Shown: in pieces, positions 19,974-46,853 of the stretch
Position numbering within the stretch: the first letter of the stretch is position 1
Layout: the number at the start of each line of letters is the position of its first letter
From: Bifidobacterium breve
GTDB taxonomy: Bacteria > Actinomycetota > Thermoleophilia > Solirubrobacterales > Solirubrobacteraceae
Assembly (NCBI GenBank): GCA_945878865.1
Contig: CAMCUD010000018.1
Location: 1 to 64,000 of the forward strand
Reading direction: 5' to 3'
Length of the DNA: 64,000 nucleotides
Program-made: the position numbers and the translations under genes
Notes under the pieces: generated by a model
What the model was told of the DNA's origin: nothing
Databases searched by the model: none
The model's input: the letters and a program-made list of their open reading frames with translations, nothing else

Positions 19974-20011
19974 GGCGCGGCAGGCCGGGCGAGGTCGGCG
20001 TGTGGCGCAAC

Positions 20012-20033
20012 ATTCGGTCCGTCCGGTCGGTAT
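20012..20033. promoter_or_regulatory. Repeat operator site 1 (upstream of TetR gene)
   Basis: Arms ATTCGGTC (20012-20019) and GTCGGTAT (20026-20033) with a 6-nt spacer, matching the window-wide repeat of ATACnGTC facing GACnGTAT. The site ends 18 nt before the TetR ATG, suggesting autoregulation. The left arm is the poorer one. Confidence 0.6.
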
Positions 20034-20051
20034 CTTTCCGAGGCGTATCGC

Positions 20052-20723
20052 ATGAGCCCAGCAACCTCCACGTCCAAGCCCCGCCGCCGCACTCAGGCGG
20101 AGCGCCGCGCCGCGACCCGGGCGCTGCTGCTCGACGCGACGATCGACTGCCTGATCGACTACGGGTACAACGGCGTGACCACAACCCGCGTCGTGGAGCG
20201 CGCGGGCGTCTCACGTGGCGCCCAGGTCCACCACTTCCCGACCAAGGCGATCCTGGTGTCCGAGGCGATGGTCCATCTCGCCGACCGGCGCAGCGCTGAC
20301 CTGGAGCGGCAGGCGGAGCAGCTCCCGCGCGGGAAGAAACGCCCGGCGGCGGCGCTCGACCTTCTGTGGGCGTCGCATCGCGGGCCTCTCTTCGAGGCGG
20401 CGATGGAGCTGTGGGTTGCGGCGCGGACCGACGATGAGCTCCGCGAGCGTCTGGTTCCCGTGGAGCTCCAGCTGGCACGCAGGACCTGGGAGCTGTGCCG
20501 GGCGCTGTTCGGTGACTACGCCAAGGCCAAGACGTTCCCGGCGAGCGTGGAGGTCGCGCTCGCGTCGATGCAGGGGCTCGCCGTGCTGGCGCTGCCCATG
20601 CGCGACGACGGCGGTGCGCTGACCGGCGAGGGCCAGACGCTGGATCAGCTCTGGCGGGCGTGCCGCAAGCGTCTGCTCGTGCTCTTCGACGAGCCCGCAC
20701 CCCCGAAGGGCGCCCGCGGCTGA
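20052..20723 (+). CDS. TetR-family regulator (regulon candidate 1)
   Basis: A 223-residue TetR repressor with an N-terminal helix-turn-helix (residues about 43-63; recognition helix around SRGAQVHHF) and a ligand-binding C-terminal half of unknown effector. It is a close paralogue of the TetR at 44931: both share [30 protein letters not shown] and PVE in register. The near-identical recognition helices predict binding to the same DNA. A copy of the repeated operator lies just upstream. ATG at 20052. A hydrolase gene follows after 7 nt and probably shares its transcript. By context the effector may be an acyl-CoA or lipid. Confidence 0.9.
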   Translation: MSPATSTSKPRRRTQAERRAATRALLLDATIDCLIDYGYNGVTTTRVVERAGVSRGAQVHHFPTKAILVSEAMVHLADRRSADLERQAEQLPRGKKRPAAALDLLWASHRGPLFEAAMELWVAARTDDELRERLVPVELQLARRTWELCRALFGDYAKAKTFPASVEVALASMQGLAVLALPMRDDGGALTGEGQTLDQLWRACRKRLLVLFDEPAPPKGARG

Positions 20724-20730
20724 TCCCGGC

Positions 20731-21474
20731 GTGGGCGGGGTGTGGCGTGAGCTCGCGGCACCGCTCGAAGCGCGGCGTCTGCGCGCCTCGGGGATCTATC
20801 GCTGGGATGCGGCGCCGCCCCCGAGGCCCGGCGTCGTCGTCCTCGTCCCCGGGTTCCTGACGCCCCGGTGGGCGCTCGCGCCGATGGCGGGCTGGTTGCG
20901 CCGCGGCGGCATCCGCTGTCACGTCGCACGGGTGGGCCTGGACATCGGCTGCGGGGACGCGCTCGCCAGCGCGCTCGCACGCGAGGTGGGCGCCCTGGCC
21001 GCGCGCGAGGAGCAGCGCGTGACACTCGTCGGTCACAGTCGCGGTGGCCATCTCGCCCGCGCGTGCGCGCATCGCCGCCCGGACGACGTCGCGGGCGTCA
21101 TCACCCTGGGCGCGCCGCCGCTGGACCACCGCGGTGTCCATCCGGTGGCGGCGCTTCCGGCGATCACGATCACGGCCCTCGGCACGAGCGGCGTGCCCGG
21201 GCTCATGGGGCTGTCCTGCTTCTACGGCAGCTGCTGTGCCGACTTCCGCGAGGAGCTCGAGCGGCCCGTGCCCGCGGGTCTGTTCCACCACGCCGTCTGG
21301 TCGCAGGATGACGCGGTGGTGCGGTCACACCGGCTGCGTCGGGGTGCTGAGACGCCCGTCGAGGTTCGGGCGAGCCACTGTGGGATGCTGGTGAACCCTG
21401 ACGTGTACGCCGCGATCGCCGCGGCGCTTGCCGACCGCGATCAGGTCGTCGAGCCCGCTGCCCGTCGTTCGTAG
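20731..21474 (+). CDS. Alpha/beta hydrolase (lipase/esterase-like)
   Basis: A 247-residue alpha/beta hydrolase. Visible features: an oxyanion-region VLVPGF at 38-42, the nucleophile elbow GHSRG with Ser103, candidate acid Asp193 or Asp194 in SQDD, and His216 in SHCGM, in the correct order and spacing for a catalytic triad. It resembles PGAP1-like or triacylglycerol-lipase-like small hydrolases. No signal peptide, so cytosolic. GTG start 7 nt after the TetR stop. The 3' end overlaps the convergent SDR gene by 34 nt. The substrate is unknown; ester hydrolysis of a lipid would fit the region. Confidence 0.82.
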   Translation: MGGVWRELAAPLEARRLRASGIYRWDAAPPPRPGVVVLVPGFLTPRWALAPMAGWLRRGGIRCHVARVGLDIGCGDALASALAREVGALAAREEQRVTLVGHSRGGHLARACAHRRPDDVAGVITLGAPPLDHRGVHPVAALPAITITALGTSGVPGLMGLSCFYGSCCADFREELERPVPAGLFHHAVWSQDDAVVRSHRLRRGAETPVEVRASHCGMLVNPDVYAAIAAALADRDQVVEPAARRS

Positions 21475-22280
21475 TCGCGGCGTGCCGCGGAGTTCTGGCC
21501 GGTGAGGTAACGGTCAGCGCCGAGCGTGCGCGTCAGCCGCCGCCGAACCCTAATCGGGAGCAGGTTGAAGACGGTGGCCGCCAGGCCCAGCGAACGCGGC
21601 ACCCACACGACCGGCCGATCGTGCTGCACGGCGCCGACGATCGCGCGGGCGACATCCTCGGCATCGACGGCCTTCGCGAACCTCGGGGTCTCCAGCCCGC
21701 TCGTGAGCTCGGTCCGGACGATCCCCGGCAGCACGGTGGTCACGCGGATCCCGTCGTCGATGAGCTCCTCGCGTGCCGCGGTGCCCAGGGCGAGGACGAA
21801 GGCCTTCGTCGCGCTGTAGGTCGCGCCGCCCGGATAGGGGATGGATCCGGCGGACGAGGCGACGTTGACGATGTGGCCGCTGCCGCGGGCGCGCATCCCG
21901 GTGAGCGCCGCCTGCATGCCGTGGCGCACCCCCTCGGCGTTGATGTCGAGCATGCGTCGCGCGGCGGCGGCGTCCTCGTCGGCGAGGAGCCCCACGTGCA
22001 TGATGCCGGCGTTGTTCACGAGGATGTCGACGGGCCCAAACCTCGCGGACACCGCTTCCAGGAACGCGTCGATGCTCGTCGGGTCCGTGACGTCCAGGGC
22101 GCACGGGAAGGCCGCGTCGCCGATCGCCTGCGCGGTCGCCGATGCGGCGGTCTCGTCAATGTCGCCGACGCCCACGCGCGCGCCGGCGTCGGCGAACGCC
22201 TTCGCGGTCGCGCGTCCTATGCCCCGTCCCGCGCCGGTGATCGCGACGACGGCGCCCTGTAGTTCCGGCCCTCGGCCCAT
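21441..22280 (-). CDS. Short-chain dehydrogenase/reductase
   Basis: A 279-residue classical SDR with the NAD(P)-binding GAGRGIG (16-22), NNAG (89-92), catalytic Ser143 region and Y155-x3-K159. The first acidic residue after beta2 (GDID) suggests NAD preference. The C-terminal extension with a basic RVRRRLTRTLG stretch is typical of actinobacterial SDRs acting on bulky lipids or steroids. ATG at 22280 preceded by a strong GGAGGAG. A perfect copy of the repeated operator ends 21 nt upstream, so it is a predicted regulon member. Substrate unknown. Confidence 0.88.
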   Translation of the reverse strand: MGRGPELQGAVVAITGAGRGIGRATAKAFADAGARVGVGDIDETAASATAQAIGDAAFPCALDVTDPTSIDAFLEAVSARFGPVDILVNNAGIMHVGLLADEDAAAARRMLDINAEGVRHGMQAALTGMRARGSGHIVNVASSAGSIPYPGGATYSATKAFVLALGTAAREELIDDGIRVTTVLPGIVRTELTSGLETPRFAKAVDAEDVARAIVGAVQHDRPVVWVPRSLGLAATVFNLLPIRVRRRLTRTLGADRYLTGQNSAARRDYERRAAGSTT

Positions 22281-22300
22281 GGTCCGCTCCTCCAAGAAAG

Positions 22301-22322
22301 ATACAGTCGGATCTGACTGTAT
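22301..22322. promoter_or_regulatory. Repeat operator site 2 (perfect, upstream of SDR)
   Basis: Perfect inverted repeat ATACAGTC (22301-22308) and GACTGTAT (22315-22322), 6-nt spacer. It lies 21 nt upstream of the minus-strand SDR start and is the cleanest 6-spacer example in the window. Confidence 0.75.
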
Positions 22323-22417
22323 ACGTTCGCACGAAGGGAAAGCGAAGGGCGGGTGAAGCAGCTGCGAAGAAGCTGAATGGGGGCGTGACGCGCCGCCGAA
22401 GAGGTTCATGAGAGAGG

Positions 22418-22447
22418 GATACAAACAGTCATGACGTGATGAAACAT
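22418..22447. promoter_or_regulatory. Repeat operator site 3 (upstream of sulfatase)
   Basis: Left half GATACAAACAGTC is a strong match to the repeated half-site; the facing half GACGTGAT then GAAACAT is weaker, with a 2-nt spacer. It ends 38 nt before the sulfatase start and links the sulfatase/GH5 pair to the putative regulon. Confidence 0.55.
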
Positions 22448-22485
22448 CGGGTCTCAGTGCGTTCGTCAGCAGTGAGGAGACCTTG

Positions 22486-23907
22486 ATGCGCCCCATGTTC
22501 ACCTGGCTCGGAGTCGTCGCGCTGGTCGCGGCGGGTCTGTGCTTCCCGGCCGCCGCGAGTGCGACGGCCACCAAGCCCAACGTCGTGGTCATCCAGACCG
22601 ACGACCAGTCGCTGAACACCATGCAGGTGATGGCCCGCACGCAGCGCCTCATCGGCGACGCAGGCCTGTCCTTCGACCGCTACTTCACGTCGTTCTCGCT
22701 CTGCTGCCCGTCTCGCGCGAGCCTGCTCACGGGCCAGTACGCCCACAACCACGGCGTCGAGAGCAACATGCCGCCGAGCGGCGGCTACTACGCGCTGGAC
22801 TCCAGCAGCACGCTGCCGGTGTGGCTGCAGCGTGCGGGCTACGTGACCGCGCACGTCGGCAAGTACCTGAACGGCTACGTGCTCGGCGTGCCGCGCGGCT
22901 GGAACGAGTGGTACACCGGCATGGATCCGACGACGTATCGGTACTTCAACTACTGGCTCAACGAGAACGGGATCCCGCGGAAGTACGGTCGCGCCGATCG
23001 CGACTATCAGACGGATGTCCTGACGCGCAAAGCCGTGGGCTTCATCGAGCGGAGAGCGAGGTCGGATAGGCCGTTCTTCCTCAGCCTGGACTACCTCGCC
23101 CCCCACGAGCAGGTTGGCGGCATCCCGCGGGTCACGCCTGCCCAGCCTCCGGTCCCGGCGCCGCGTCACGCCGGGGCGATGGCGCATGCGGAGCTTCCGG
23201 CGGATCCGAGCTTCGACGAGGCCGACGTGTCGGACAAGCCCGCCCATGTCCGCAACCGGCCGGCGCTCACCGATGCCCAGCGGGAGGAGATCACCACCCA
23301 GTACCGCGCACGGCTCGAGTCGCTGCTCGCGGTTGACGAGGGCGTCGAGCAGGTCATCCAGGCGCTGGAGGCAGCGGGTGAGCTCGATTCGACGTACGTG
23401 CTGTTCGTCAGCGACAACGGCTGGATGGAGGGGCAGCATCGGTACCCCAGTGGCAAGCGCGTCGTCTACGAGCCATCGATGCACCTTCCGCTGCTCATGC
23501 GCGGCCCGGGAGTTCCGGCCGGTACGCGCACGGCGGCGATGGCGGCGAACGTCGACCTCGCGCCGACGCTGCTCGAGCTGACGGGCGCGGCCGCGGATGC
23601 CGAGATCGACGGGCGGTCGCTCGTGCCGGTGCTCGGCGCGCCGGACACCGACTGGGACCGCGACATCCTGCATGAGTTCGTGAGCGGGAGTCGCGGCGGA
23701 GGCGATCCCTCGTTCACGGCGGTCCGCAGTCCCGACGACCTCGTCTACGTCGAGCACGCCACCGGCGAGCAGGAGCTCTACGACCTGCGCGCCGACCCGT
23801 TCCAGCTCGACAGCCGCCACGACGACCCCGCCTACGCCTCGCGCCGCGAGGCGCTGGCCGAACGGCTCGCCGAGCTGCGCAGCTGCCACGGCGAGAGCTG
23901 CCGTTGA
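22486..23907 (+). CDS. Secreted sulfatase
   Basis: A 473-residue type I (formylglycine-dependent) sulfatase. The signature C73-C-P-S-R77 marks Cys73 as the residue converted to formylglycine, and an upstream DD pair (QTDDQ) supplies calcium ligands; SDNGW and GKRVVYEPSMHLPL are also family blocks. A signal peptide (about residues 1-27) shows export. The family is closest by pattern to N-acetylglucosamine-6-sulfatase/arylsulfatase types; the sulfated substrate cannot be read. ATG at 22486 chosen with GAGGAGA six nt upstream; a TTG one codon earlier is the alternative. It is 27 nt ahead of the GH5 gene and almost certainly co-transcribed with it. Confidence 0.92.
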   Translation: MRPMFTWLGVVALVAAGLCFPAAASATATKPNVVVIQTDDQSLNTMQVMARTQRLIGDAGLSFDRYFTSFSLCCPSRASLLTGQYAHNHGVESNMPPSGGYYALDSSSTLPVWLQRAGYVTAHVGKYLNGYVLGVPRGWNEWYTGMDPTTYRYFNYWLNENGIPRKYGRADRDYQTDVLTRKAVGFIERRARSDRPFFLSLDYLAPHEQVGGIPRVTPAQPPVPAPRHAGAMAHAELPADPSFDEADVSDKPAHVRNRPALTDAQREEITTQYRARLESLLAVDEGVEQVIQALEAAGELDSTYVLFVSDNGWMEGQHRYPSGKRVVYEPSMHLPLLMRGPGVPAGTRTAAMAANVDLAPTLLELTGAAADAEIDGRSLVPVLGAPDTDWDRDILHEFVSGSRGGGDPSFTAVRSPDDLVYVEHATGEQELYDLRADPFQLDSRHDDPAYASRREALAERLAELRSCHGESCR

Positions 23908-23934: not shown

Positions 23935-25503
23935 ATGCATGATCGACCCACCATCCTTCGCCGAGCGACCCGTGGTGCGCCGTGGTGGCTTGCCGCCGTT
24001 GCTGCGCTGATGCTCATGGCGGCGGCGCCCGCACGCGCGGACGGCCCCCAGGACCTCAACGGCGTCGATGGCTACGTCGACGGCGAGGGCCGATGGTTCA
24101 CCGACGACGAGGGCCGCGTGATGTTCTTCCGGGGCTTCGTCTGGCCGTACAAGCGCGAGCCATGGCTCATCGACGCGGCGGGCGTCGGCGAGGACGACGC
24201 GCAGTTCGTCGCCGACGAGGGCTTCAATCTCATGCAGGTCCGATTCACCTACCAAGGCCTGGAGCCCGCGCCCGGCCAGTACGACGAGGCCTACATGGAC
24301 CGCGTCGTCGCGCTGGTCAAACAGTTGACCTCCCGCGGGGTGCGCGTGTTCATCCAGGCGAACCAGGGCGGGTGGGGCCCGGCGGTCGGCGGCCACGGTT
24401 TCCCGCCGTGGGCGACGTACACCGGAGGCCGCCCGAACCCCGACGTGCCGTTCGGCTTCAGCTACATCCTGAACCCGGCGACGAACAAGGCGTTCGACAA
24501 CTTCTGGGCGAACCGCACGAGCCCGCGCGGTGACGGCCTGCAGGACGGCTTCGCCAAGGCGGTCGCCGAGCTGGGCCGACGGCTGGCCGACGATCCCCTG
24601 TTCCTGGGTGTCGACGTCCTCAACGAGCCGTGGCTCGGGTCGGACTGGCCGGGGTGCTTCCCCATCGGGCGGATCAATCCTGCGGGCTGCCGGAAGTTCG
24701 ATCGCACGAAGCTCAAGCCGTTCTACGAGCGGTTCATCGACACGGTGCGCCCGGCCATGCCGCGGCAGATGGTGCTCTACGAGCCCACGCCGACGTTCGA
24801 CCTGGGCATTCCGACCGGACTCGACGACATCGGCGGCGACGACGGCAACGTCGGCTTCTCCTTCCACGCCTACTGCGCGCTCGACGGCGGCGGGGCCGAC
24901 CTCAAGCCCCTGCCCTTCGAGCGGCTGAAGACGCGGTTCTGCACGAAGGAGGAGGACGACATCATGGACTACGCGCACGAACACGCCGCAGCGCAGGGCG
25001 TGCCGATGCTCAGCAGCGAATTCGGCGCCACGCCGCTGGCCAGCACGACCGCACGGCTGATGGCGCTGCACGAGCGGCGCATCGTGCCGTGGACCTATGC
25101 GGCGTACTGCTGCCGCGACGCCAGTCAGGAGGCCAGCGGCGACGTCATCCTCGATCCGAAGAAGCCCCCGACCGAAGACAACCTCGACCAGGAGAAGCTG
25201 CGGGTGCTCGTGCGACCGTACCCCGCGGCGCTCGCGGGTGTGCCCACGAGGATGGCGTTCGACCCCGCGTCGCGGAGCTACGAGCTGCGCTTCACGACCT
25301 CGCGGCCGGGCGGCGGCGCGTATGACGCCGGTACCGAGTCGGTCGTCCAGGTGCCCAAGCGACAGTACCCCGATGGGTACGCCGTCACCGAGCTCACGGG
25401 CGCGCGGGTGACCTCTGTGCCGGGCGCGGAGCAGCTGACGCTCGTCGCGGAGACCGGCGCAGAGGAGGTCGTGCTGAAGATCGGGCCCCGACCCGCGGCG
25501 TGA
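23935..25503 (+). CDS. Secreted GH5 endoglycoceramidase-like glycosidase
   Basis: A 522-residue exported glycoside hydrolase family 5 enzyme resembling Rhodococcus endoglycoceramidase and the related steryl-glucosidases. Signal peptide residues 1-36. Acid/base E231 in DVLNEPW and nucleophile E362 in SSEFGATP are present; FDNFWANRT and the C-terminal YPAALAGVPT linker to a small beta-sandwich domain are characteristic of the endoglycoceramidase group. One family element, the H-Q-D after the third strand, reads N-Q-G here. Predicted role: cleaving a glycan or glucose from a glycolipid outside the cell. SD AGGAGG seven nt before the ATG. Co-transcribed with the sulfatase; a repeat operator lies upstream of the pair and another at its stop codon. 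Confidence 0.85.
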   Translation: MHDRPTILRRATRGAPWWLAAVAALMLMAAAPARADGPQDLNGVDGYVDGEGRWFTDDEGRVMFFRGFVWPYKREPWLIDAAGVGEDDAQFVADEGFNLMQVRFTYQGLEPAPGQYDEAYMDRVVALVKQLTSRGVRVFIQANQGGWGPAVGGHGFPPWATYTGGRPNPDVPFGFSYILNPATNKAFDNFWANRTSPRGDGLQDGFAKAVAELGRRLADDPLFLGVDVLNEPWLGSDWPGCFPIGRINPAGCRKFDRTKLKPFYERFIDTVRPAMPRQMVLYEPTPTFDLGIPTGLDDIGGDDGNVGFSFHAYCALDGGGADLKPLPFERLKTRFCTKEEDDIMDYAHEHAAAQGVPMLSSEFGATPLASTTARLMALHERRIVPWTYAAYCCRDASQEASGDVILDPKKPPTEDNLDQEKLRVLVRPYPAALAGVPTRMAFDPASRSYELRFTTSRPGGGAYDAGTESVVQVPKRQYPDGYAVTELTGARVTSVPGAEQLTLVAETGAEEVVLKIGPRPAA

Positions 25504-25528
25504 TACATACAGTCAAGCCGGTTGGTAC
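25502..25528. promoter_or_regulatory. Repeat operator site 4 (upstream of adenylate cyclase)
   Basis: Strong left half GATACATACAGTC (25502-25514) overlapping the GH5 stop; facing half GTTGGTAC (25521-25528) with a 6-nt spacer. It ends 9 nt before the GTG of the cyclase gene. Confidence 0.65.
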
Positions 25529-25537
25529 GTTGGCGCT

Positions 25538-27115
25538 GTGACGCCACTGCCATCGGGGCTGCAGACGTGGATGGGTGAGCACCCTGCGCGGGCCCTCATG
25601 CTCACCCTCGCGGCTGTGGCCGGCCAGACCCTCCTGGCCGCGGTGGCCGCGACCCTCCTCGCGGGCGCCGCGGCCCAGGAGGCTGCCGTCGCGGCGGCGG
25701 GCATCGGCCTGGTGCTCTCTGCCGAGACCGCGCTCGCCGCGGTGCGGATGCGTCGGGCGATGCGCCCGGCCCGTTCGTGGCTGTTCGCGGCGGAAGGCGC
25801 TGCGGTCGCCGGGGAGGCGTGGTGCGCGCTGGTGCGCCTGCCCCGCATGGCGGGGGACCGCATCGGCGTGCTGGCCACCGTGATCGCGGCGGCGGCCTCG
25901 GCCGTGGTCGTGGCGGTCGCCGCCGGCTGGACTTCGGCCGATCTCCCCGCGCTGATCGCGGTCGCGGCGGCCCTGTCGATCCTCATGGCGCTCCTGCGCT
26001 TCCTCGGAGCCGAGTTCGCGCTGCGGCCGGCGCTGCGCCGGGTCTGCGACGACCTCGCGCCTGGAGCTCCGCTCGCGGGGGCCGGCGTCTCCCTGCGGCT
26101 CCGTCTGCTGATCGCGCTCCTCGCGATGAATGTCATGACCGCGTTGATCGTGGGCACGACGGCGTCCGGCGGCACGAGTGGGGGCACCGGCACGGGACTC
26201 GTCGTCGCCGTCGGCGCCGGGCTGCTCTGCTCGCTGGGGGTGTCGTTGCTGCTGGCACGATCAGTCGTCGAGCCGCTCCTCGGGCTCCGCGACGCCGCGG
26301 ATCGCGTCACTGGCGGTGTGCTGGACGTGCACGCCGCGGTGCTCGCCGGTGACGAGACCGGCGAGCTGGCCGTTGCGCTGAACCGCATGCTGCTGGGACT
26401 GCGCGAACGCGCGGGGCTCCGGAACGCCCTGGGGCGCTATGTGCCCGGCGAGGTCGCCGACCGGCTCGCGGCTGAGGGCGGGCGCCTCCCGGCCGAGGAC
26501 GTCGACCTCACGGTGGTGTTCCTCGACGTTCGCGGGTTCACCGCGCTCAGCGAGCGCGTCAGCGGGGTGGAGCTGGCCGGGCGGCTCAACCGGCTGTTCG
26601 AGCGGGTCGTGCCCATCATCGAGCGGCATGGGGGGCACGCGAACAAGTTCGTCGGGGACGGGCTGCTCGCGGTCTTCGGCAGTCCGCGCCCGTTGGAGCG
26701 ACACGCCGATGCCGCGGTGGCGGCGGTGCTCGAGATCATCGAAGGCGCCCCTGAGGGCGAGCTCCCGCTCTGCGCCGGCGTGAACTCGGGGCGCGCGCTG
26801 GTCGCGACGATCGGCGGCGGAGCGCGGCTGGACTTCACGGTGCTGGGCGACGTCGTCAACACGGCCGCGCGGGTGCAGGCGGCGACGCGCGAGACGGGGG
26901 ACCCGGTCCTCATCACCGAGGCCGTCGTGGAGCGCCTGGCTGGGGGCGCTCGGGGCTGGGCGCCCCGCCCCGCGGTGCCCCTACGGGGGAAGGCGCGCCC
27001 GGTCCTCCTCTTCGGCTACGAGCTGTGGCGGTCGCCGGCCGCATGTGATAGATACAGTCAGGTCGGTATGTTTATTGGTCGCAATCCGGCTCGCCGGGAG
27101 GACACATGGACTTGA
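25538..27115 (+). CDS. Membrane class III adenylate cyclase with HAMP domain
   Basis: A 525-residue cyclase of the mycobacterial Rv1318c type: about six transmembrane helices (20-240), a HAMP linker (about 240-292), then a class III catalytic domain (about 318-500). Metal-binding D330 and D374, adenine-selecting K370 (NKFVGDG), and transition-state N441 and R445 (VVNTAAR) are all present, so cAMP synthesis is expected. GTG start at 25538. The C-terminal 25 codons run through the next operator and overlap the following dehydrogenase gene by 10 nt; no earlier stop exists in frame. A cyclase inside a lipid-catabolic regulon is unusual. Confidence 0.9.
   Translation: MTPLPSGLQTWMGEHPARALMLTLAAVAGQTLLAAVAATLLAGAAAQEAAVAAAGIGLVLSAETALAAVRMRRAMRPARSWLFAAEGAAVAGEAWCALVRLPRMAGDRIGVLATVIAAAASAVVVAVAAGWTSADLPALIAVAAALSILMALLRFLGAEFALRPALRRVCDDLAPGAPLAGAGVSLRLRLLIALLAMNVMTALIVGTTASGGTSGGTGTGLVVAVGAGLLCSLGVSLLLARSVVEPLLGLRDAADRVTGGVLDVHAAVLAGDETGELAVALNRMLLGLRERAGLRNALGRYVPGEVADRLAAEGGRLPAEDVDLTVVFLDVRGFTALSERVSGVELAGRLNRLFERVVPIIERHGGHANKFVGDGLLAVFGSPRPLERHADAAVAAVLEIIEGAPEGELPLCAGVNSGRALVATIGGGARLDFTVLGDVVNTAARVQAATRETGDPVLITEAVVERLAGGARGWAPRPAVPLRGKARPVLLFGYELWRSPAACDRYSQVGMFIGRNPARREDTWT
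27052..27069. promoter_or_regulatory. Repeat operator site 5 (inside the cyclase 3' end, upstream of acyl-CoA dehydrogenase)
   Basis: Arms ATACAGTC (27052-27059) and GTCGGTAT (27062-27069), 2-nt spacer, continuing into GTTT as in other copies. It lies within the last codons of the cyclase and 36 nt upstream of the dehydrogenase ATG. Confidence 0.7.
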
Positions 27116-28302
27116 AGGACACCCCAGACCAGGCCGCGTACCGCCAACGCGTGCGCGCGTGGATCGAGGAGCATCGCCACGAGGCGCCCGAGCTGAGCAG
27201 CGGCTTGCACGCCGCAGACCCCACGGCATTCCGCACGTGGCAGGGCACGCTCGCGGACGCCGGCCTCGTGGGCATCACGTGGCCGAAGGAGTTCGGCGGC
27301 GCCGGCCTCGGCCCGATCGAGCAGGTCATCGTCTCGACCGAGCTGCGCCGCGCGGGCTGTCCGGGCATCGTCGACCACATCGCGGTCGGCAACATCGGGC
27401 CGACGATCTTCACGTACGGCAGTTCTGCGCAGCAGGAGCGCTACCTCGGGCCGCTGCTCCACGGCGACGAAGGGTGGTGCCAGCTCTTCAGTGAGCCGGC
27501 GGCGGGCTCCGACCTCGCAGGCATCACGACGCGCGCCGTCGCCCAGGACGACGGGACGTGGCGGGTCACCGGACAGAAGGTGTGGACCACGATGGCGCAG
27601 TTTGCCGACTACGGCATGCTGCTGGCGCGGACCGACCCCGACGTGCCCAAGCACCGCGGGCTGACGATGTTCCTCATCGACATGCGCGCGGCCGGAGTGA
27701 CGGTCCGACCGCTGCGCCAGATCTCTGGGGCGGCGCACTTCAACGAGGTCTTCCTCGACGACGTCGAGCTGCCGGCCGACGCCGTGCTCGGGCCGGTCGA
27801 CGGTGGCTGGGGCGTGGCGATGACGACGCTGATGTTCGAGCGTCTCGCCCTGCTCGCGGCCTTCGAGGAGCTCGGCTGGAGCGCGGAGGACTTCGTGGAG
27901 CCAGTCGCCGATCTCCCGGCGATGGGCGACGCGCACGTGCGTCAGCGCATCGCAGAGCTCACGACCGAGCTGCTGTCGCTGCGCTACTCGGCGTACCGCA
28001 CGCTGACGGCGCTCTCGCGCGGTGACGTCCCCGGGCCGGAGGCCGGGCTCGGGAAGATCGCGATCATCAACGCCGGCGTGCAGGCCAGCGAGCTCATCGT
28101 CGACCTGCTCGGACCGGCGGCGATCGACGGCCGCTGGGGTGACCTCGCCATGGAGATGCCCGGTCTGCGCTCAGGCGGAGGCACCGAGGAGATCCTGCGC
28201 ACGACCGTCGGCGATCGGGTGCTCGGGCTGCCCCCCGAGCCGCGTGTCGACAAGGACGTGCCGTTCAGCGAACTGACGACCGGAAAGGCGGTGGCGGCAT
28301 GA
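27106..28302 (+). CDS. Acyl-CoA dehydrogenase (FadE type), alpha partner
   Basis: A 398-residue FAD-dependent acyl-CoA dehydrogenase introducing an alpha-beta double bond into an acyl-CoA. Family blocks present: WPKEFGGAG near 60-68, FSEPAAGSDLA, the W-T-T-M-A-Q-F-A-D segment and the C-terminal SGGGTEEILR. ATG 27106, SD-like GGGAGGA upstream. It is followed with 4-nt overlap by a second, more divergent dehydrogenase; such adjacent pairs in actinobacteria (for example FadE28/FadE29) form alpha2-beta2 heterotetramers used on steroid side chains and CoA-linked rings. Head of a five-gene operon under operator 5. Confidence 0.92.
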   Translation: MDLKDTPDQAAYRQRVRAWIEEHRHEAPELSSGLHAADPTAFRTWQGTLADAGLVGITWPKEFGGAGLGPIEQVIVSTELRRAGCPGIVDHIAVGNIGPTIFTYGSSAQQERYLGPLLHGDEGWCQLFSEPAAGSDLAGITTRAVAQDDGTWRVTGQKVWTTMAQFADYGMLLARTDPDVPKHRGLTMFLIDMRAAGVTVRPLRQISGAAHFNEVFLDDVELPADAVLGPVDGGWGVAMTTLMFERLALLAAFEELGWSAEDFVEPVADLPAMGDAHVRQRIAELTTELLSLRYSAYRTLTALSRGDVPGPEAGLGKIAIINAGVQASELIVDLLGPAAIDGRWGDLAMEMPGLRSGGGTEEILRTTVGDRVLGLPPEPRVDKDVPFSELTTGKAVAA

Positions 28303-29453
28303 ACTTCGGGCTCTCCGAGGAGCAGGAGCTCCTGCGAGACACCGCGCGCGACGCGCTCGAGCGTCTGGACACCATCGCGTCGGCACGGGAGGCACTCGAC
28401 GGCGTGGACCTGCTCGACAGCTGGTCGACGGCGGCCGAGGCGGGCTGGGCCGGCCTGGTCATCGACGAGGAGCACGGCGGAGCCGGGCTGGGCGTCTTCG
28501 ACGCCATGCTCGTGCACGAGGAGCTGGGCCGCCGCCTGACGGGGACAGGGCTGCTCGGGCACGTCACCGCGACGGGGCTGCTGAACGCCGCGGCGCAGGA
28601 CGAGCGCGTGGCCACGATCCTTCCCGCCCTCGCGGCCGGGGAGCGCCGTGCGGCGATGACGCTGGCCCGCCCGCCCCGCGACGACGACGAGGGGTGGACG
28701 CTCGACGCGCCGGTTCCCGGCGGAGGCCGTGCGTCGCTGCCCGCCGCGGACGCCGGCGGCGCCCTGAGCGGGACAGTCGCGCTACACCCCGAGCTCCCCG
28801 GGGCCGACGTCGTCGTCGTGGTCGCGACGGGACCGAGTGGCCGGGTCGGCGCCTACCTCGTCGACACCGCGGCTCCAGGGGTGCAGATCACCGAGGTGGT
28901 GCACGGTGACGCGACGCGCCCGCTCGGCACGCTCGAGCTGCGGCAGGCGGCCTCGACGCCGCTGCAGGCGGATGAGGGGGACCTCGCGCGCGCCTGGTAC
29001 ACGGGGCAGGCGCTGCTGGCGGCGGAGGCGCTCGGGGTCTGCCAGGCGACGCTGGACCTCGGGGTGGCCTACGCGAAGGAGCGCCACGCGTTCGGCCGGC
29101 CGATCGGGTCCTACCAGGCCGTCAAGCACCAACTCGTGGAGATCCTCCGGCGGATCGACCTCACGCGCAACCTGTGCTTCTTCGCTGGGTACGCCGCCGA
29201 TTCGTCGCCCGGCGAGTTCGCGCTCGCCGCGAGCTCCGCGCGCTTCGCGGGGGAGCAGGGCGCCGACTACGCGACGCGCACCTGCATCGCCGTCCATGGC
29301 GGCATCGGATCGACGTGGGAGCACGACGCGCCCCTCTTCTGGCGCAGGGCCCAGCTGTCACGCCGCCTGCTGGGCGGCGTCGAGGACGCCGGCGACAGGG
29401 TCGCCGGGGAGATCATCACGACCGCTCGCGACCGGGTCGCGGCGGCGGCCTGA
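28299..29453 (+). CDS. Acyl-CoA dehydrogenase, beta partner
   Basis: A 384-residue acyl-CoA dehydrogenase homologue that starts in the stop of the preceding dehydrogenase gene. It has the FadE27/FadE29-like C-terminal block AVHGGIGSTWEHDAPLFWRRA and the helical segment YAKERHAFGRPIGSYQAVKH, but the central beta domain is short and degenerate (Pro/Gly/Ala rich, lacking the usual FSEPxAGSD block). This asymmetry supports a heteromeric enzyme in which the two chains share FAD and catalytic residues. Role inferred: dehydrogenation of a bulky acyl-CoA. Confidence 0.9.
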   Translation: MNFGLSEEQELLRDTARDALERLDTIASAREALDGVDLLDSWSTAAEAGWAGLVIDEEHGGAGLGVFDAMLVHEELGRRLTGTGLLGHVTATGLLNAAAQDERVATILPALAAGERRAAMTLARPPRDDDEGWTLDAPVPGGGRASLPAADAGGALSGTVALHPELPGADVVVVVATGPSGRVGAYLVDTAAPGVQITEVVHGDATRPLGTLELRQAASTPLQADEGDLARAWYTGQALLAAEALGVCQATLDLGVAYAKERHAFGRPIGSYQAVKHQLVEILRRIDLTRNLCFFAGYAADSSPGEFALAASSARFAGEQGADYATRTCIAVHGGIGSTWEHDAPLFWRRAQLSRRLLGGVEDAGDRVAGEIITTARDRVAAAA

Positions 29454-29473: not shown

Positions 29474-30328
29474 ATGAGCACCACGGAGACCCAGTTCAAC
29501 GCCGACGCGATCGGCGTTCCCAGTGACCCTGTCGAGTTCGAGGTCACGCGCGAGCGCATCGTGCAGTACGCCGAGGCGACGAACGACACGCTCACCCCGC
29601 ACGCCGAGGGCATCTACGCGCCGCCGGTGTTCGCCGTCGTCCCTGCGTTCGAGGTCCTCGCCCCGACGATGGCCGAGGTGATCCCGCCCGAGCTGCTCAT
29701 GATGGGGGTCCACGGCGAGCAGGACTTCCGCTTCCACCGCCCGATCGAGCCCGGCATGACGCTCGTGACCCGGGCGACCCCCATCGGGTTCGCCGCACGG
29801 TCGTCGGGCGTCACCGTCACCGTTCGCGGGCAGACCACCCTGCCGGACGGCACCCCGATCGTCGACCAGGACATGACGTCGTTCGTGCGGGGCGCGACGT
29901 CTGCGACGTCCGTGGGCGAGACCGCCGCCGACCACGCCTTCGACGAGGCGCTGCGCCGGACCGAACCGGACGCGACGGTCGTGCAGCAGTTCGACGCCGA
30001 CCAGACGTACCGGTACGCCGAGGCGTCGGGGGACCCGATGCCGATCCACCTCGACGAGGATGTCGCCAAGGCGATGGGCCTGCCCGGGATCATCATCCAC
30101 GGGCTGTGCACGATGGCGTTCTGCTCGCGTGCGGTCATCGAGACGGCGTGCCCGGAGAACCCGACGCGGCTGCGTCGCCTCGCGGTGCGGTTCAGCAAGG
30201 TCGTGCAGCCGGAGCAGGAGATCATCACGTCCCTGTGGCGGACGGGGCCGGGGGAGTTGCGGTTCGAGACGTCCCTGGTCGGCGGCGCGCCCGTCATCAA
30301 GGACGGGCTCGCGGAGATCGCCGGCTAG
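29474..30328 (+). CDS. MaoC-family enoyl-CoA hydratase (double hotdog)
   Basis: A 284-residue two-hotdog MaoC protein that hydrates an enoyl-CoA. The N-terminal hotdog (to about 150) is a degenerate structural repeat; the C-terminal hotdog carries the hydratase-2 motif with the catalytic pair D187 and H192 (SGDPMPIHLD) and a downstream IIHGLCTMA. The ATG at 29474, with AAAGGA upstream and a 20-nt gap from the previous stop, is preferred; the longer open frame overlaps the dehydrogenase gene. In the operon it would act directly after the dehydrogenase pair. Confidence 0.92.
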   Translation: MSTTETQFNADAIGVPSDPVEFEVTRERIVQYAEATNDTLTPHAEGIYAPPVFAVVPAFEVLAPTMAEVIPPELLMMGVHGEQDFRFHRPIEPGMTLVTRATPIGFAARSSGVTVTVRGQTTLPDGTPIVDQDMTSFVRGATSATSVGETAADHAFDEALRRTEPDATVVQQFDADQTYRYAEASGDPMPIHLDEDVAKAMGLPGIIIHGLCTMAFCSRAVIETACPENPTRLRRLAVRFSKVVQPEQEIITSLWRTGPGELRFETSLVGGAPVIKDGLAEIAG

Positions 30329-30331
30329 CCG

Positions 30332-31939
30332 ATGCGTCGCAGCCTGCGTCGACTGGAGATCAACGCCCGTGCGTTCCGTGCGCTGGCGGCCTCGGGCCTG
30401 CTCGGCCCGGTGCCGCCGCGCGCGGTGCCCGGTGTTGTCCGCGCGCTGCGGCGCTGGGGCCCGGCCGCCGGTCTGGCCGCCCAGGCCTCCGCGCGGTACG
30501 GGGATCGCACCGCGCTCATCGACGATCGCGGTTCGCTGACCTACCGGGACCTGGACGAGCGCTCGAGCGCGCTCGCCGCAGCCTGGCGCGCCGACGGGCT
30601 CGGCGCGGGAGACGGGATCGGAATCCTCTGCCGCAACCACCGGTACTTCGTCGACGCGATGCTGGCGACGTGGAAGCTCGGCGGGCGCGGGGTCTACCTC
30701 AACACCTCGTTCGCCGGCCCGCAGTTGTGCGACGTGCTGCGCCGGGAGGACGTCGAGTTCGTGGTGTGTGACGAGGAGCACCTCCCGCTGCTGGCCGGTG
30801 CGGCCGGCGTGAGGCGTGCCGTCGGATGGTGCGCATCGGACGCCTGTGACGTTCCTACGGTCGACGCCCTGATCGCGGCGCACGAGGGTGCCGAGCCGGA
30901 CCCACCCGAACGCGAGGGCAGCGTCGTCATGCTCACGAGCGGGACGACCGGCACGCCGAAGGGCGCCCCGCGGCCGGCGCCCCGATCGATCGTGACGGTC
31001 GGCGCGCTGCTCGACCGCATTCCGCTGCGCGGCGACGAGCCGATGCTCCTCGGCGCGCCGATGTTCCACGCCTGGGGCTTCACGCACGCCTCCTTGGCGA
31101 TCGCGCTGGGCGCGCCGCTCGTCATCACGCCGCGATTCGATCCGCTGTGGGCCGTCCGCGCGGCCGCGTCGCATCGCTGCACGACGCTCGTGCTCGTCCC
31201 GGTGATGCTCAAGCGGATCCTGGATCTCGGAGACGCGGAACTCGCACGGCACGATCTGTCGGCGGTCCGGATCATCGGTACCGGCGGGTCGGCGCTGACG
31301 GCCGAATGCGCACGGCGCACGAGCGAGCGCTTCGGCGACGTGCTGCACAACCTGTACGGCTCGACGGAGGTGTCGGTCGCGACGATCGCGACGCCGCGCG
31401 ACCTCCGCGAGGCGCCGGGCTGTGCCGGCCGTCCGGTGCTGGGGACGGAGGTGCGGCTCTACGACGAGGACGGCCTGCGGCTGCACCGGCCCGGAGAGAT
31501 CGGCGGCATCTACGTGCGCGGCGACTTGTCGTTCGAGGGGTACACCGACGGGGGAACCAAGCGCGAGATCGACGGCCTGCTGTCCTCCGGCGACCTGGGA
31601 TATCTCGACGAGGAGGGGCGGCTGTTCGTCGTCGGCCGGGACGACGACATGATCGTGTCCGGGGCCGAGAACGTCTTCCCGCAGGAGGTGGAGGAGCTGC
31701 TGCTCGCCCATGAGGCGATCGCCGACGCGGCCGTCGTCGGCGTCCCGGACGAGGAGTTCGGGCAGCGGCTGCGCGCGTACGTCGTCCCGGCGGGGGAGCC
31801 CCTGTCCGCCGACGACGTGCGCGACCATGTGCGGGCCGGCCTCGCCTCGTTCAAGGTCCCGCGCGACGTCGTGTTCATCGACGAGCTGCCGCGCAACCCG
31901 ACGGGCAAGGTCCTCAAGCGCGAGCTGGCCGGCAGGTGA
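30332..31939 (+). CDS. Acyl-CoA synthetase (FadD type)
   Basis: A 535-residue AMP-forming ligase that activates a carboxylic acid to its CoA thioester. The phosphate-binding loop TSGTTGTPKG, the A5-type YGSTEVS, the SGDLGYLDEEGRL hinge region and the C-terminal catalytic lysine in PTGKVLKREL are all present. The N-terminal 40 residues are basic, as in mycobacterial long-chain FadD proteins. It starts 3 nt after the MaoC stop and its own stop overlaps the aldehyde dehydrogenase start. Substrate chain not readable. Confidence 0.93.
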   Translation: MRRSLRRLEINARAFRALAASGLLGPVPPRAVPGVVRALRRWGPAAGLAAQASARYGDRTALIDDRGSLTYRDLDERSSALAAAWRADGLGAGDGIGILCRNHRYFVDAMLATWKLGGRGVYLNTSFAGPQLCDVLRREDVEFVVCDEEHLPLLAGAAGVRRAVGWCASDACDVPTVDALIAAHEGAEPDPPEREGSVVMLTSGTTGTPKGAPRPAPRSIVTVGALLDRIPLRGDEPMLLGAPMFHAWGFTHASLAIALGAPLVITPRFDPLWAVRAAASHRCTTLVLVPVMLKRILDLGDAELARHDLSAVRIIGTGGSALTAECARRTSERFGDVLHNLYGSTEVSVATIATPRDLREAPGCAGRPVLGTEVRLYDEDGLRLHRPGEIGGIYVRGDLSFEGYTDGGTKREIDGLLSSGDLGYLDEEGRLFVVGRDDDMIVSGAENVFPQEVEELLLAHEAIADAAVVGVPDEEFGQRLRAYVVPAGEPLSADDVRDHVRAGLASFKVPRDVVFIDELPRNPTGKVLKRELAGR

Positions 31940-33399
31940 GCGTCGTGGAGGCCGCTGCGCGCGCACGGACCGCGCAGGCGGCGTGGGCTGCGAAGGGAGT
32001 GCGGGACCGGTGTGAGGTGCTCCGGCGGATGGCCCGCTGGGTGGGCGAGCACGCCGACGACCTCGCGGACGTCATCGTCGCCGAGACCGGCAAGGCACGC
32101 GACGACGCGGTGATCGCCGAGCTCGGCTACACGCTGCAGGCCCTCGCGTTCTGGGCGCGCCGGGCGCCGGGCTGGCTCGCCGACGAGCGGGTCCGGTGGG
32201 CGGGACCCGCGCTGGTGGGCAGGCGGCTGTCGGTTCGCCACGTGCCCCTCGGTCTCGTGGGGGTCATCGCGCCCTGGAACTACCCGCTCGCCAACGCGCT
32301 GGGCGACGTCATCCCCGCGCTGACTGCGGGCAACGCCGTGCTGCTCAAGCCCTCGGAGCACACGCCGCGCACCGCGCGGCTGGCCGCCGACGGGCTGCGC
32401 GCGTGTGGGCTGCCCGACGGAGTGCTGGAGGTCGTGACTGGCGCGGGTGAGGCGGGGGCTGCGGTCGTCGACGCCGTCGACATGGTGATGTTCACCGGCT
32501 CGACCGCGACGGGTCGTGCCGTGGCCGAGCGCGCCGGCCGCCGGCTCATCCCGGCGTCGTTGGAGCTGGGTGGCAAGGACCCGATGCTCGTCCTCGCGGA
32601 CGCCGACCTCGAGCGCGCGGCGAACACCGCGGTCTACTACGCGATGCAGAACGCAGGGCAGACGTGCTTGTCGATCGAGCGGGTGCTCGTCGAGGACGCC
32701 GTGCACGATCGGTTCGCGGCGCTGGTGGCCGAGCGCGTCGCCGCGCTGCGGACGGGGCGCCCTGGGGGCCTGGGCGCTGTGGACGTCGGCGGCCTGAGCG
32801 CCCCGGGGCAGATCGAGATCGTCGAGGCGCACGTCGCCGACGCGGTGGCGCAGGGCGCGGCGGTGATGTGCGGCGGACACCGGATCACGGGCCCGGGTGA
32901 CCTGTACGCGCCGACGGTGCTGACCAGCGTGACGCCCGCGATGCGCTGCATGCGCGAGGAGACCTTCGGCCCGCTGCTACCCATCATGCGCGTCGCCGAT
33001 GTGGACGAGGCCGTGGCGGTGGCGAACGACTCGCCGTATGGCCTTGCGGCGTCGGTGTTCACACGCAGCGCGCGGCGCGGCGAGGCGGTCGCCGCGCGTC
33101 TGGAGGCCGGCAGCGTGGCCGTCAACGACGCGATGGTGTTCTTCGCCGCGCTCGATCTGCCGATGGGAGGCTGGAAGGACTCCGGTGTCGGATCGCGCCA
33201 CGGCATCGGCGGAATTCGCAAGTACACGCGCGCGCAGTCCGTCGTCGCCGCGTCGCGGCTGCCGCGCCGAGACCTCCATACCTACCCGTACCGTGCGTGG
33301 CGCACCCGCCTGCTGCTCAGCGCGCTCCGGCGGTTGTCCGCTCCTCGCCGAGGGCGACCACGCCTCGCCGCGCCAGGCCGCCGATCTCCCGGTCGCTGA
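31936..33399 (+). CDS. Aldehyde dehydrogenase family protein
   Basis: A 487-residue NAD(P)-dependent aldehyde dehydrogenase. Catalytic Cys244 (GQTCLS), general base Glu210 (LELGGKDP), and the N-terminal-Rossmann PWNYPLA motif are present; the family is the succinate-semialdehyde/fatty-aldehyde type. GTG start overlapping the ligase stop. The final 80 bp overlap the 3' end of the convergent CoA-transferase; the last 35 residues are Arg/Pro rich and do not resemble the family, so the true C-terminal end may be altered. It may oxidise an aldehyde released from the lipid, feeding the adjacent ligase. Confidence 0.9.
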   Translation: MSVVEAAARARTAQAAWAAKGVRDRCEVLRRMARWVGEHADDLADVIVAETGKARDDAVIAELGYTLQALAFWARRAPGWLADERVRWAGPALVGRRLSVRHVPLGLVGVIAPWNYPLANALGDVIPALTAGNAVLLKPSEHTPRTARLAADGLRACGLPDGVLEVVTGAGEAGAAVVDAVDMVMFTGSTATGRAVAERAGRRLIPASLELGGKDPMLVLADADLERAANTAVYYAMQNAGQTCLSIERVLVEDAVHDRFAALVAERVAALRTGRPGGLGAVDVGGLSAPGQIEIVEAHVADAVAQGAAVMCGGHRITGPGDLYAPTVLTSVTPAMRCMREETFGPLLPIMRVADVDEAVAVANDSPYGLAASVFTRSARRGEAVAARLEAGSVAVNDAMVFFAALDLPMGGWKDSGVGSRHGIGGIRKYTRAQSVVAASRLPRRDLHTYPYRAWRTRLLLSALRRLSAPRRGRPRLAAPGRRSPGR

Positions 33400-36415: not shown

Positions 36416-36442
36416 GATACAAACAGGCGATTTGGTATGTTT
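36416..36442. promoter_or_regulatory. Repeat operator site 6 (divergent, between CitE-MaoC and a secreted protein gene)
   Basis: GATAC followed by arms AAACAGGC (36421-36428) and TTTGGTAT (36431-36438), 2-nt spacer, then GTTTC. It lies in a 72-nt gap, 9 nt from the leftward start and about 38 nt from the rightward one, so it can control both. Confidence 0.65.
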
Positions 36443-36479
36443 CTTTCTCGCACGTTCCCACCGGGAGAGGGAGATACGC

Positions 36480-40810: not shown

Positions 40811-40837
40811 GATACATACAGTTGTGACTGTATAGTT
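40811..40837. promoter_or_regulatory. Repeat operator site 8 (upstream of large secreted protein)
   Basis: GATAC (40811-40815) precedes ATACAGTT (40816-40823) facing GACTGTAT (40826-40833); the inner 7 bp ATACAGT/ACTGTAT are perfect. It ends about 35 nt before the start codon and overlaps a TATAGT-like -10 hexamer. Confidence 0.75.
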
Positions 40838-40868
40838 GTTAACGGGTCGGTCGGAGGAGCGTGGAGAG

Positions 40869-44836: not shown

Positions 44837-44881
44837 GTGGTGCTCCTCTCGTAGGTGGGCGGCAGGCGCCGCCGTCGACTT

Positions 44882-44911
44882 AATACATACCAGCTTGACT
44901 GTTTGTTTCAT
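44882..44911. promoter_or_regulatory. Repeat operator site 9 (divergent, SDR / TetR)
   Basis: AATAC then ATACCAGC (44887-44894), 2-nt spacer, GACTGTTT (44897-44904) then GTTTCAT. It lies 45 nt from the SDR start and 20-26 nt from the TetR ATG, so it can control both promoters and gives autoregulation. Confidence 0.7.
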
Positions 44912-44930: not shown

Positions 44931-45584
44931 ATGACGGGTGTCGACCCAGCACCGAGAACGCAGGACGCTCGCCGTGTCGCCACGCGCACGGCGTTGCTCG
45001 ACGCGACCATCGAGTGCCTGATCGTCTTCGGGTACCAGGGCACGACGACCGCGCGGATCGCCGAGCGCGCTGGCGTCTCGCGCGGCGCGCAGATCCATCA
45101 CTTCCACACGAAGGCGGGGCTGGTGGCCGAGGCGCTGCACCAGCTGGCCGAGCGGAGGGCGATGCAGCTGGTTCCCCACCTGGAGCGTCTGCCCGCCGGC
45201 GCCGGCCGGGTGACCGCGGGCCTGGACCTGCTGTGGGACGCGCACACCGATCCGCTGTTCGAAGCGGCGCTGGAGCTGTGGGTGGCCGCGCGCACCGATG
45301 AAGAGCTGCGCGCGCAGCTGGCGCCAGTCGAGCGCGACATCACCAGCCGGCTGCGCGCCGCCGGCCGCCCGGTCTTCGATCCCGACGGCGAGATCGCCGA
45401 CCTGGACACGTGGCTTGATCTCGCACTCGGAACGATGCGTGGCCTGGCCATGCAGCGTTCCCTCCAGCCGCCGGACCGTCGCGCGCCGACGGCACGCGAG
45501 TGGGCGCGGTGGCGCGAGCGCCTCGCGGCGCTCCTACGCGCACCCGCCTTCGCATCACACCCCAGAACAAGGAGCATCACGTGA
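44931..45584 (+). CDS. TetR-family regulator (regulon candidate 2)
   Basis: A 217-residue TetR regulator, close paralogue of the one at 20052. The helix-turn-helix is at about 38-58 with recognition helix SRGAQIHHF. The shared ligand-domain blocks ([25 protein letters not shown]) suggest similar effectors. ATG 44931; the longer in-frame extension upstream runs antisense through the SDR gene. Its stop overlaps the start of the thiolase gene, so repressor and enzyme are co-translated. The operator of the regulon lies directly in front. Confidence 0.9.
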
Positions 45585-46792
45585 GTAGCAACGGGTCCAA
45601 CCGCGTCTTCGTCATTGGCGTGGGGATGACGAAGTTCGAGAAGCCGGGCAGTCGCGAATGGGACTACCCGGACATGGCCAAGGAGGCCGGCACGAAGGCG
45701 CTGGAGGACGCGGGGGTGGACTACGCGGACATCGAGCGCGCGTTCGCGGGCTACGTGTACGGCGAATCCACCAGCGGGGAGCGGGCGCTGTACGAGTTGG
45801 GGCTCACCGGCCTGCCCATCGTCAACGTCAACAACAACTGCTCCACGGGATCGACCGCGCTGTACCTCGGTCGTGAGGCGGTGCGGGGCGGGCTGGCCGA
45901 CTGCGTGCTCGCGCTCGGCTTCGAGAAGATGCAGAAGGGCTCGCTCGGAGCCACGTTCCATGACCGCGAGCAGCCGACGATGCGCCACTTCATGGCGCTG
46001 TCCGAGCTGTACGAGTTCGAGGCCGCACCCCCCGCCGCGCAGATGTTCGGCAACGCCGGACGGGAGCACATGTCCAACTTCGGGTCCACGCCCGAGCACT
46101 ACGCGTGGATCGGCTGGAAGAACCACAAGCACTCGGTCAACAACCCCTACGCGCAGTTCCAGACCGAGTACACGCTCGACGAGATCAAGGAGGCCCCGCT
46201 GATCTACGAGCCGCTCACGAAGCTTCAGTGCTCGCCGACGAGCGACGGCGCCGGCGCCGCGGTGCTGGCCTCGGAGCGCTTCGTCGACGAGCACGAGCTC
46301 TGGGACCAGGCGGTCGAGATCGTCGCGCAGTCCCTCGTCACGGACATGGAGAGCAGCTTCGGGGACCGCAGCGCCATCAGCGTGGTGGGGTCGAAGATGA
46401 CGCGGCGGGCCGCCGACGAGGTGTACGCGGCGTCGGGCCTCACAGCCGCGGACGTCGACGTCGTCGAGCTCCACGACTGCTTCAGCTGCAATGAGCTGGT
46501 CACCTACGAGGGGCTCGGGCTTGCTGCCGAGGGCGAGGGGCACAAGCTCGTCGAGAACGAGGCGACGACGTACGGCGGCAGTGGCCCCGTCGTCAACCCG
46601 TCCGGCGGGCTGATCAGCAAGGGTCACCCGCTGGGAGCGACCGGCCTGGCGCAGTGCAGCGAGTTGACGTGGCAACTGCGCGGCACCGCCGACAAGCGGC
46701 AGGTCGACGGCGCGGAGGTCGCGCTGCAGCACAACATCGGCATCGGCGGGGCGGTGGTCGTGACGTTGTATCGCCCGGCTGCTGCCGCCTAA
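45581..46792 (+). CDS. SCP2/lipid-transfer-type thiolase
   Basis: A 403-residue thiolase of the SCP-x/Ltp group, acting in the last step of beta-oxidation of branched or steroid-like chains. Catalytic Cys87 lies in [16 protein letters not shown] and the C-terminal [14 protein letters not shown] supply the histidine and the second active-site region. The degradative type normally has a second Cys near the C-terminus; here the corresponding region reads QHNIGIGG, which matches the Ltp-like subfamily. GTG at 45581 with AAGGAG upstream, overlapping the TetR stop by 4 nt. Confidence 0.92.
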
Positions 46793-46795
46793 CAA

Positions 46796-46823
46796 GATAC
46801 ATACGGTCACGACCGTATCTGAA
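46796..46823. promoter_or_regulatory. Repeat operator site 10 (upstream of SRPBCC gene)
   Basis: AGATAC precedes a perfect dyad ATACGGTC (46801-46808) facing GACCGTAT (46811-46818), 2-nt spacer. It begins directly after the thiolase stop and ends about 35 nt before the SRPBCC ATG. The covarying G/C change in both arms relative to other copies supports a real two-fold site. Confidence 0.75.
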
Positions 46824-46853
46824 CGTTCCATCACCACCAACAGGAGGCCATCG

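What the first reader, a model, noticed from the sequence alone, without database searches (positions are those of the whole stretch)
25538..27115. A class III adenylate cyclase embedded in the lipid regulon
The cyclase is preceded by an operator copy and followed with overlap by the acyl-CoA dehydrogenase operon. It suggests that induction of lipid breakdown is coupled to cAMP production, an unusual regulatory link. In mycobacteria cAMP and cholesterol/fatty-acid use are connected, which is a suggestive parallel.
Basis: partly seen in the sequence, partly recalled or inferred. Interest (0 to 1): 0.6.

Follow-up and report, generated by a model that had tools for sequence, protein, structure and literature searches.

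The report
Adenylate cyclase inside lipid-degradation regulon
A soil actinobacterium carries a membrane enzyme predicted to make the signal molecule cAMP, its gene sitting behind the same DNA switch as a block of lipid-degradation genes, which suggests, but does not yet show, that eating this lipid also turns on a cAMP signal.

Summary
ORF 25538-27115(+) encodes a six-helix membrane, HAMP, class III cyclase with every catalytic residue intact. It overlaps the acyl-CoA dehydrogenase gene by 10 bp. The sequence before it (25502-25531) is a genuine member of a repeated operator: in a leave-one-out matrix test, only other members of the same site set score higher among 284,000 positions. The acyl-CoA dehydrogenase operon has its own operator (27047), inside the last codons of the cyclase, so the genes form one array with parallel switches.
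Two related TetR genes in the window (20052+ and 44931+, 54% identical) have such sites in their own promoters and are the likely repressors. All strong sites but one lie within 20-47 kb, inside a stretch (~14-49.5 kb) absent from the same place in two congeners. The cyclase is therefore cargo of an accessory island that also encodes a secreted sulfatase, an endoglycosylceramidase and beta-oxidation enzymes. Relatives keep a different cyclase copy in a conserved locus; the window copy is a fast-evolving paralog.
Co-regulation is well supported by sequence. cAMP output and its purpose are inferred: the genome encodes a CRP-type receptor, but no CRP-site enrichment was found in the window. A negative-feedback or receptor role is most likely.

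The parts
25538..27115 (+). 6TM-HAMP-class III adenylate cyclase (TM about 19-37, 51-69, 109-127, 138-156, 188-206, 221-239; HAMP 238-290; cyclase 323-486); GTG start, possible ATG at 25571
25502..25531 (+). operator copy immediately before the cyclase; right half degenerate
27047..27076 (+). operator copy of the acyl-CoA dehydrogenase operon, inside the cyclase 3' end
27106..28302 (+). acyl-CoA dehydrogenase 1, overlaps the cyclase by 10 bp
28299..29453 (+). acyl-CoA dehydrogenase 2 (nearest NCBIfam model IpdE2, below its cut-off)
29474..30328 (+). MaoC-type hydratase (approximate start)
30332..31939 (+). acyl-CoA ligase, FadD2/FadD12-like (below the curated cut-off)
31936..33399 (+). aldehyde dehydrogenase
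22483..23907 (+). secreted sulfatase
23935..25503 (+). secreted GH5 endoglycosylceramidase-like enzyme (5ccu, E 8e-45)
22418..22447 (+). operator copy before the sulfatase
22296..22325 (.). operator-like palindrome (wider spacing) before the divergent SDR1 (21441-22280, - strand)
20052..20723 (+). TetR regulator 1
20007..20036 (.). weaker palindrome of the same type before TetR 1
44931..45584 (+). TetR regulator 2, 54% identical to TetR 1; likely regulator of the sites
44880..44909 (-). operator copy between SDR2 (about 43952-44836, - strand) and TetR 2
36416..36445 (+). operator copy between the HpcH/HpaI gene (34548 to about 36407, - strand) and a secreted protein gene (about 36480-37214, + strand)
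40811..40840 (+). operator copy before a large protein of unknown family (about 40869-43892)
45500..46792 (+). SCP2-type thiolase (6hsj, E 2e-170; PRK08256 over cut-off)
46796..46825 (+). operator copy (best palindrome) before a START-like lipid-binding protein (46854-47282)

Best explanation
The cyclase is a regulated member of an island-borne lipid (probably glycolipid) degradation regulon. One or both of the paralogous TetR proteins bind GATACATACMGKC-NN-GMCKGTATGT-type sites and repress the sulfatase, endoglycosylceramidase, cyclase and beta-oxidation genes in parallel; a lipid-derived ligand, most likely an acyl-CoA intermediate, releases them. The induced cyclase is a six-helix membrane receptor-type enzyme whose HAMP linker passes a membrane or lipid signal to a class IIIb-type catalytic domain. 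It then makes cAMP that acts through a CRP-type protein encoded elsewhere, most likely to match or restrain lipid uptake and breakdown (negative feedback). Shown by sequence: intact enzyme architecture, shared operator, island membership. Inferred: which TetR binds, the ligand, cAMP output, and the feedback role.
For: Domain architecture and intact D330, K370, D374, T434, N441, R445, with a 6TM-HAMP-cyclase model. Leave-one-out operator test; the half-site without mismatch found only twice in the genome, both in this window. Two TetR genes with sites in their own promoters. A TetR of this family sits divergent to the closest ACAD1 homolog (67%) in G024, and next to a 79% identical SCP2-thiolase in G116. 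The sulfatase-GH5-cyclase-ACAD array is co-oriented with no terminator-like site between GH5 and cyclase. The island is absent from two congeners. A CRP homolog is present. M. tuberculosis precedents: PMC9995111, PMC8856561.
Against: No binding or expression data. The right half of the cyclase operator is degenerate. No sigma-70-type promoter match in 22-34 kb. No CRP-site enrichment in the window. The cyclase is on a long branch (1.45 against a median of 0.32), which could also mean relaxed constraint. The genome has 13 class III cyclases, so its share of cellular cAMP may be small.
Confidence: 0.55

Rival explanations
1. The cyclase is a passenger: a duplicated, fast-evolving copy lodged between two operator copies of a lipid operon. 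It is transcribed with the neighbours but contributes little to lipid use.
For: Long branch; no ortholog above about 48% identity in 146 family genomes, where conserved copies sit in another locus; two operator copies flank it as direct repeats; 12 other cyclases in the genome.
Against: All catalytic residues and nearly all family-invariant positions are kept; the reading frame, the TM helices and the HAMP domain are intact; it has its own operator.
Confidence: 0.2
2. The TM region is the functional part: it helps sense, import or process the lipid largely independently of cAMP, as reported for Rv1625c in cholesterol breakdown.
For: In M. tuberculosis the TM domain of Rv1625c alone restores cholesterol degradation (PMC8856561). 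Six-helix region modelled with fair confidence.
Against: The catalytic site is fully conserved. Pfam finds no transporter or other known domain in the TM region.
Confidence: 0.12
3. cAMP is a positive, feed-forward signal: lipid induces the cyclase, and cAMP-CRP activates uptake or central metabolism genes elsewhere.
For: A CRP-like protein with cNMP-binding and HTH_Crp_2 domains exists.
Against: No CRP-site enrichment in the window. In M. tuberculosis raised cAMP blocks the KstR1 regulon rather than raising it (PMC8856561).
Confidence: 0.13

Closest known systems
Rv3645 (MacE) of Mycobacterium tuberculosis
   Same: Predicted six TM helices, HAMP and class III cyclase domain; linked to fatty-acid metabolism (PMC9995111)
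   Different: The paper reports Rv3645 as the essential cyclase in vitro; nothing read there places it in a TetR lipid operon. The window protein is an island-borne paralog. No direct sequence comparison with Rv3645 was made here.
Rv1625c/Cya of M. tuberculosis
   Same: 6TM membrane class III cyclase tied to lipid (cholesterol) use (PMC8856561); fold match 7yzk at E 6e-11, but with rmsd 14.8 over the whole chain
   Different: The paper describes a helical domain rather than HAMP before its cyclase; different gene context
KstR1 regulon (TetR repressor, CoA-thioester ligand, lipid catabolism)
   Same: TetR regulators; several palindromic operators; acyl-CoA dehydrogenase, ligase, hydratase and thiolase genes
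   Different: Different operator (KstR motif from own knowledge); a cyclase gene carries the operator; the regulon sits on one accessory island
Conserved Solirubrobacteraceae cyclase (HxlR-cyclase-TPP enzyme-PPX/GppA locus; own copy C12:25976)
   Same: Same protein family, 39-48% identical, same architecture
   Different: Housekeeping-type locus, often downstream of a mce operon; no such operator found there

Membership tests
Class III adenylate cyclase | Guanylate_cyc domain over the curated cut-off | tested here: met
   58.5 bits against 21.9
Class III adenylate cyclase | Two metal Asp, transition-state Asn and Arg | tested here: met
   D330, D374, N441, R445 intact
Class III adenylate cyclase | ATP-specifying residues (Lys with Asp or Thr) | tested here: met
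   K370 and T434; the Lys/Thr pair is typical of class IIIb (own knowledge); T434 aligns with the Thr of CyaB 3r5g
Class III adenylate cyclase | Makes cAMP from ATP | not testable with these tools
   needs an enzyme assay
MacE/Rv3645-like 6TM-HAMP cyclases | Six TM helices, then HAMP, then cyclase | tested here: met
   hydropathy, Pfam and model
MacE/Rv3645-like 6TM-HAMP cyclases | Sequence orthology to Rv3645 | not tested
   the Rv3645 sequence was not fetched
TetR-controlled lipid regulon | TetR gene with the same operator in its own promoter | tested here: met
   44880-44909 before TetR 2; a weaker site at 20007 before TetR 1
TetR-controlled lipid regulon | Operators at several lipid genes beyond chance | tested here: met
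   seven window sites recovered in the leave-one-out test
TetR-controlled lipid regulon | The TetR protein binds the sites and is released by a lipid ligand | not testable with these tools
   needs a binding assay
KstR1 family proper | KstR-type regulator | tested here: inconclusive
   NCBIfam gave only weak, sub-cut-off TetR models and none named KstR; no direct comparison with KstR was made

The most novel reading that the evidence does not exclude
A mobile or accessory lipid-degradation island carries its own receptor-type adenylate cyclase, hard-wired behind the same TetR operator, as a built-in feedback signal: substrate induces the enzymes and at the same time a membrane cyclase that reports lipid load as cAMP and restrains the regulon.
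Probability: 0.25. Interest if true: 0.62.

Novelty: new variant of a known kind. Interest (0 to 1): 0.42.

Why it matters
The link between cAMP and lipid use in mycobacteria rests on phenotypes, and its mechanism is unresolved in the papers read (PMC9995111, PMC8856561). A bacterium in which a cyclase of the same layout sits under the lipid regulon's own operator would give a direct genetic handle: the wiring can be tested with one repressor, one operator and one cyclase deletion. The frequent position of related cyclases just downstream of mce operons in other Solirubrobacterales hints that the cAMP-lipid link is old in this group.

Tried and rejected
CRP-type sites near the cyclase: no enrichment. 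The operator as a genome-wide lipid motif: rejected, because strong sites are confined to the window plus one elsewhere (C44) and none were found in 40 relatives at up to 3 mismatches. Orthologous cyclase in a lipid operon of relatives: none clearly found; G116 has a cyclase about 9 kb from a 79% identical SCP2-thiolase, but the cyclase tree does not group it with the window copy. The window's mce operon as the cyclase-linked mce of relatives: rejected, because it matches a different mce operon. tRNA-borne island: no tRNA in the window. Laying the whole genome in the Python box was not available, so the leave-one-out background covers 142 kb, both strands, of this genome. Literature searches for a cyclase within a TetR lipid operon found nothing direct.

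Full report
Observation. ORF 25538-27115(+) is real and coding (GC3 0.89). Pfam finds HAMP and the class III cyclase domain. Hydropathy gives six TM helices, and D330, K370, D374, T434, N441 and R445 are the expected metal, substrate and transition-state residues. The two Asp, the Asn and the Arg are invariant among 36 homologs, and K and T are kept in 33. An AlphaFold model (mean pLDDT 78.5, pTM 0.55) shows the same layout, with residues 506-525 disordered; those residues are encoded by the stretch that holds the next operator. PDB fold matches are mostly adenylyl and other nucleotidyl cyclases (OaPAC, CyaC, CyaB; Cya 7yzk). The K/T pair is that of class IIIb enzymes such as CyaC (from own knowledge).

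Operator. Aligned sites share GATACATACMGKC-NN-GMCKGTATGT. Sites before the sulfatase, the cyclase, the acyl-CoA dehydrogenase operon, the 36.4-kb divergent pair, the 40.9-kb gene, the SDR2/TetR 2 pair and the START gene were each scored with a matrix trained without that site. In 284,000 scored positions nothing outside the set (either strand of its sites) scores as high. The cyclase site scored 33.8; the only higher position outside the window's listed sites was the C44 site, itself a set member in front of an SDR gene followed by a third TetR paralog. Two weaker palindromes with wider spacing lie before SDR1 (22296) and TetR 1 (20007). The sites were first collected by similarity, so leave-one-out removes most but not all of that selection. 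Independently, the left half without mismatch occurs only at 25502 and 46796 in 4.96 Mb. The pattern with up to three mismatches is absent from 40 relatives.

Correction to the finding. The acyl-CoA dehydrogenase operon has its own operator at 27047, inside the cyclase's last codons. The cyclase and the dehydrogenase overlap by 10 bp. The + strand array runs sulfatase, endoglycosylceramidase, cyclase, two acyl-CoA dehydrogenases, MaoC, acyl-CoA ligase, aldehyde dehydrogenase, with operators at 22418, 25502 and 27047. Whether each marks a promoter or an internal roadblock is not known; a sigma-70-type scan found no promoter match.

Regulator. Two TetR genes lie in the window, 20052+ and 44931+, 54% identical with near-identical recognition helices, each with a site in its promoter. 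In G024 a TetR of this family is divergent to the closest ACAD1 homolog (67%) with a START gene beside it, and in G116 one adjoins a 79% identical SCP2-thiolase. Both promoters there carry a different palindrome, of the type AATCAATCGATTGATT. So the regulator-gene association recurs while the operator has changed.

Island. Genes from about 14.0 to 49.5 kb have no counterpart between the same flanks in congeners G001 and G002, although the outer genes match at 46-97%. The congeners hold about 10 kb of other genes there. The regulon, with its cyclase, is therefore an accessory segment. Its likely substrate is a glycolipid: the GH5 enzyme matches secreted endoglycosylceramidase (5ccu, E 8e-45) and it neighbours a secreted sulfatase; substrate identity is inferred.

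Origin of the cyclase. The genome has 13 class III cyclases. In relatives the same cyclase family is kept in a syntenic HxlR-cyclase-TPP enzyme-PPX/GppA locus, where the own genome has another copy (C12:25976). The window copy is on a long branch and groups weakly (91/82) with second copies in G010, G086 and G054, none of them seen in this setting. No ortholog above about 48% identity was found in 146 family genomes. Named relatives place the family as Solirubrobacteraceae.

Mechanism. Co-regulation of the cyclase with lipid genes is the best-supported step. A CRP-type protein (cNMP-binding plus HTH_Crp_2) exists on C27. The window shows no excess of CRP-type sites, 5 against 10.6 expected. 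In M. tuberculosis, Rv3645/MacE (six TM helices, HAMP, cyclase) is needed to tolerate long-chain fatty acids, and low cAMP goes with higher oleate uptake (PMC9995111). Raised cAMP also prevents induction of the TetR-type KstR1 regulon (PMC8856561). By analogy, a cyclase inside such a regulon is most simply a brake or load sensor. This last step is inference.

Limits. No expression, binding or enzyme data. The start codon (25538 GTG or 25571 ATG) is unresolved. Rv3645 itself was not compared by sequence.

Noticed in passing
L058-L061, L066, L128-L131: Cyclases of this family in at least six genera lie a few kb downstream of a run of MlaD (mce) genes, often as mce-HxlR-cyclase-TPP enzyme; 9 of 28 loci examined. 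The own genome appears to have only one mce operon (51850 onward), of a different type.
   Followed up: partly
window 14000-49500: About 35 kb with the whole lipid regulon is missing from the same place in congeners G001 and G002; no tRNA at the borders.
   Followed up: partly
L185 about 5030 (G000:C44): The only strong operator found outside the window, before an SDR gene followed by a third TetR paralog (49% identical to TetR 2), suggesting the regulon reaches one more locus.
   Followed up: partly
L008 (G000:C19:54074-57523): Another class III cyclase (Ad_Cy_reg plus catalytic domain) sits between two TetR genes, with a thiolase-like gene downstream: possibly a second cyclase-lipid cluster in this genome.
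   Followed up: partly
L142 8760-8830; L154 15570-15610: Relatives' TetR-ACAD1 and TetR-thiolase loci carry a different palindrome, of the type AATCAATCGATTGATT, at the promoter: operator turnover within one TetR subfamily.
   Followed up: no
window 22296-22325 and 20007-20036: Palindromes built from the same half-sites but with about 4 bp wider spacing than the other operators; might be bound differently, or by the other TetR paralog.
   Followed up: no
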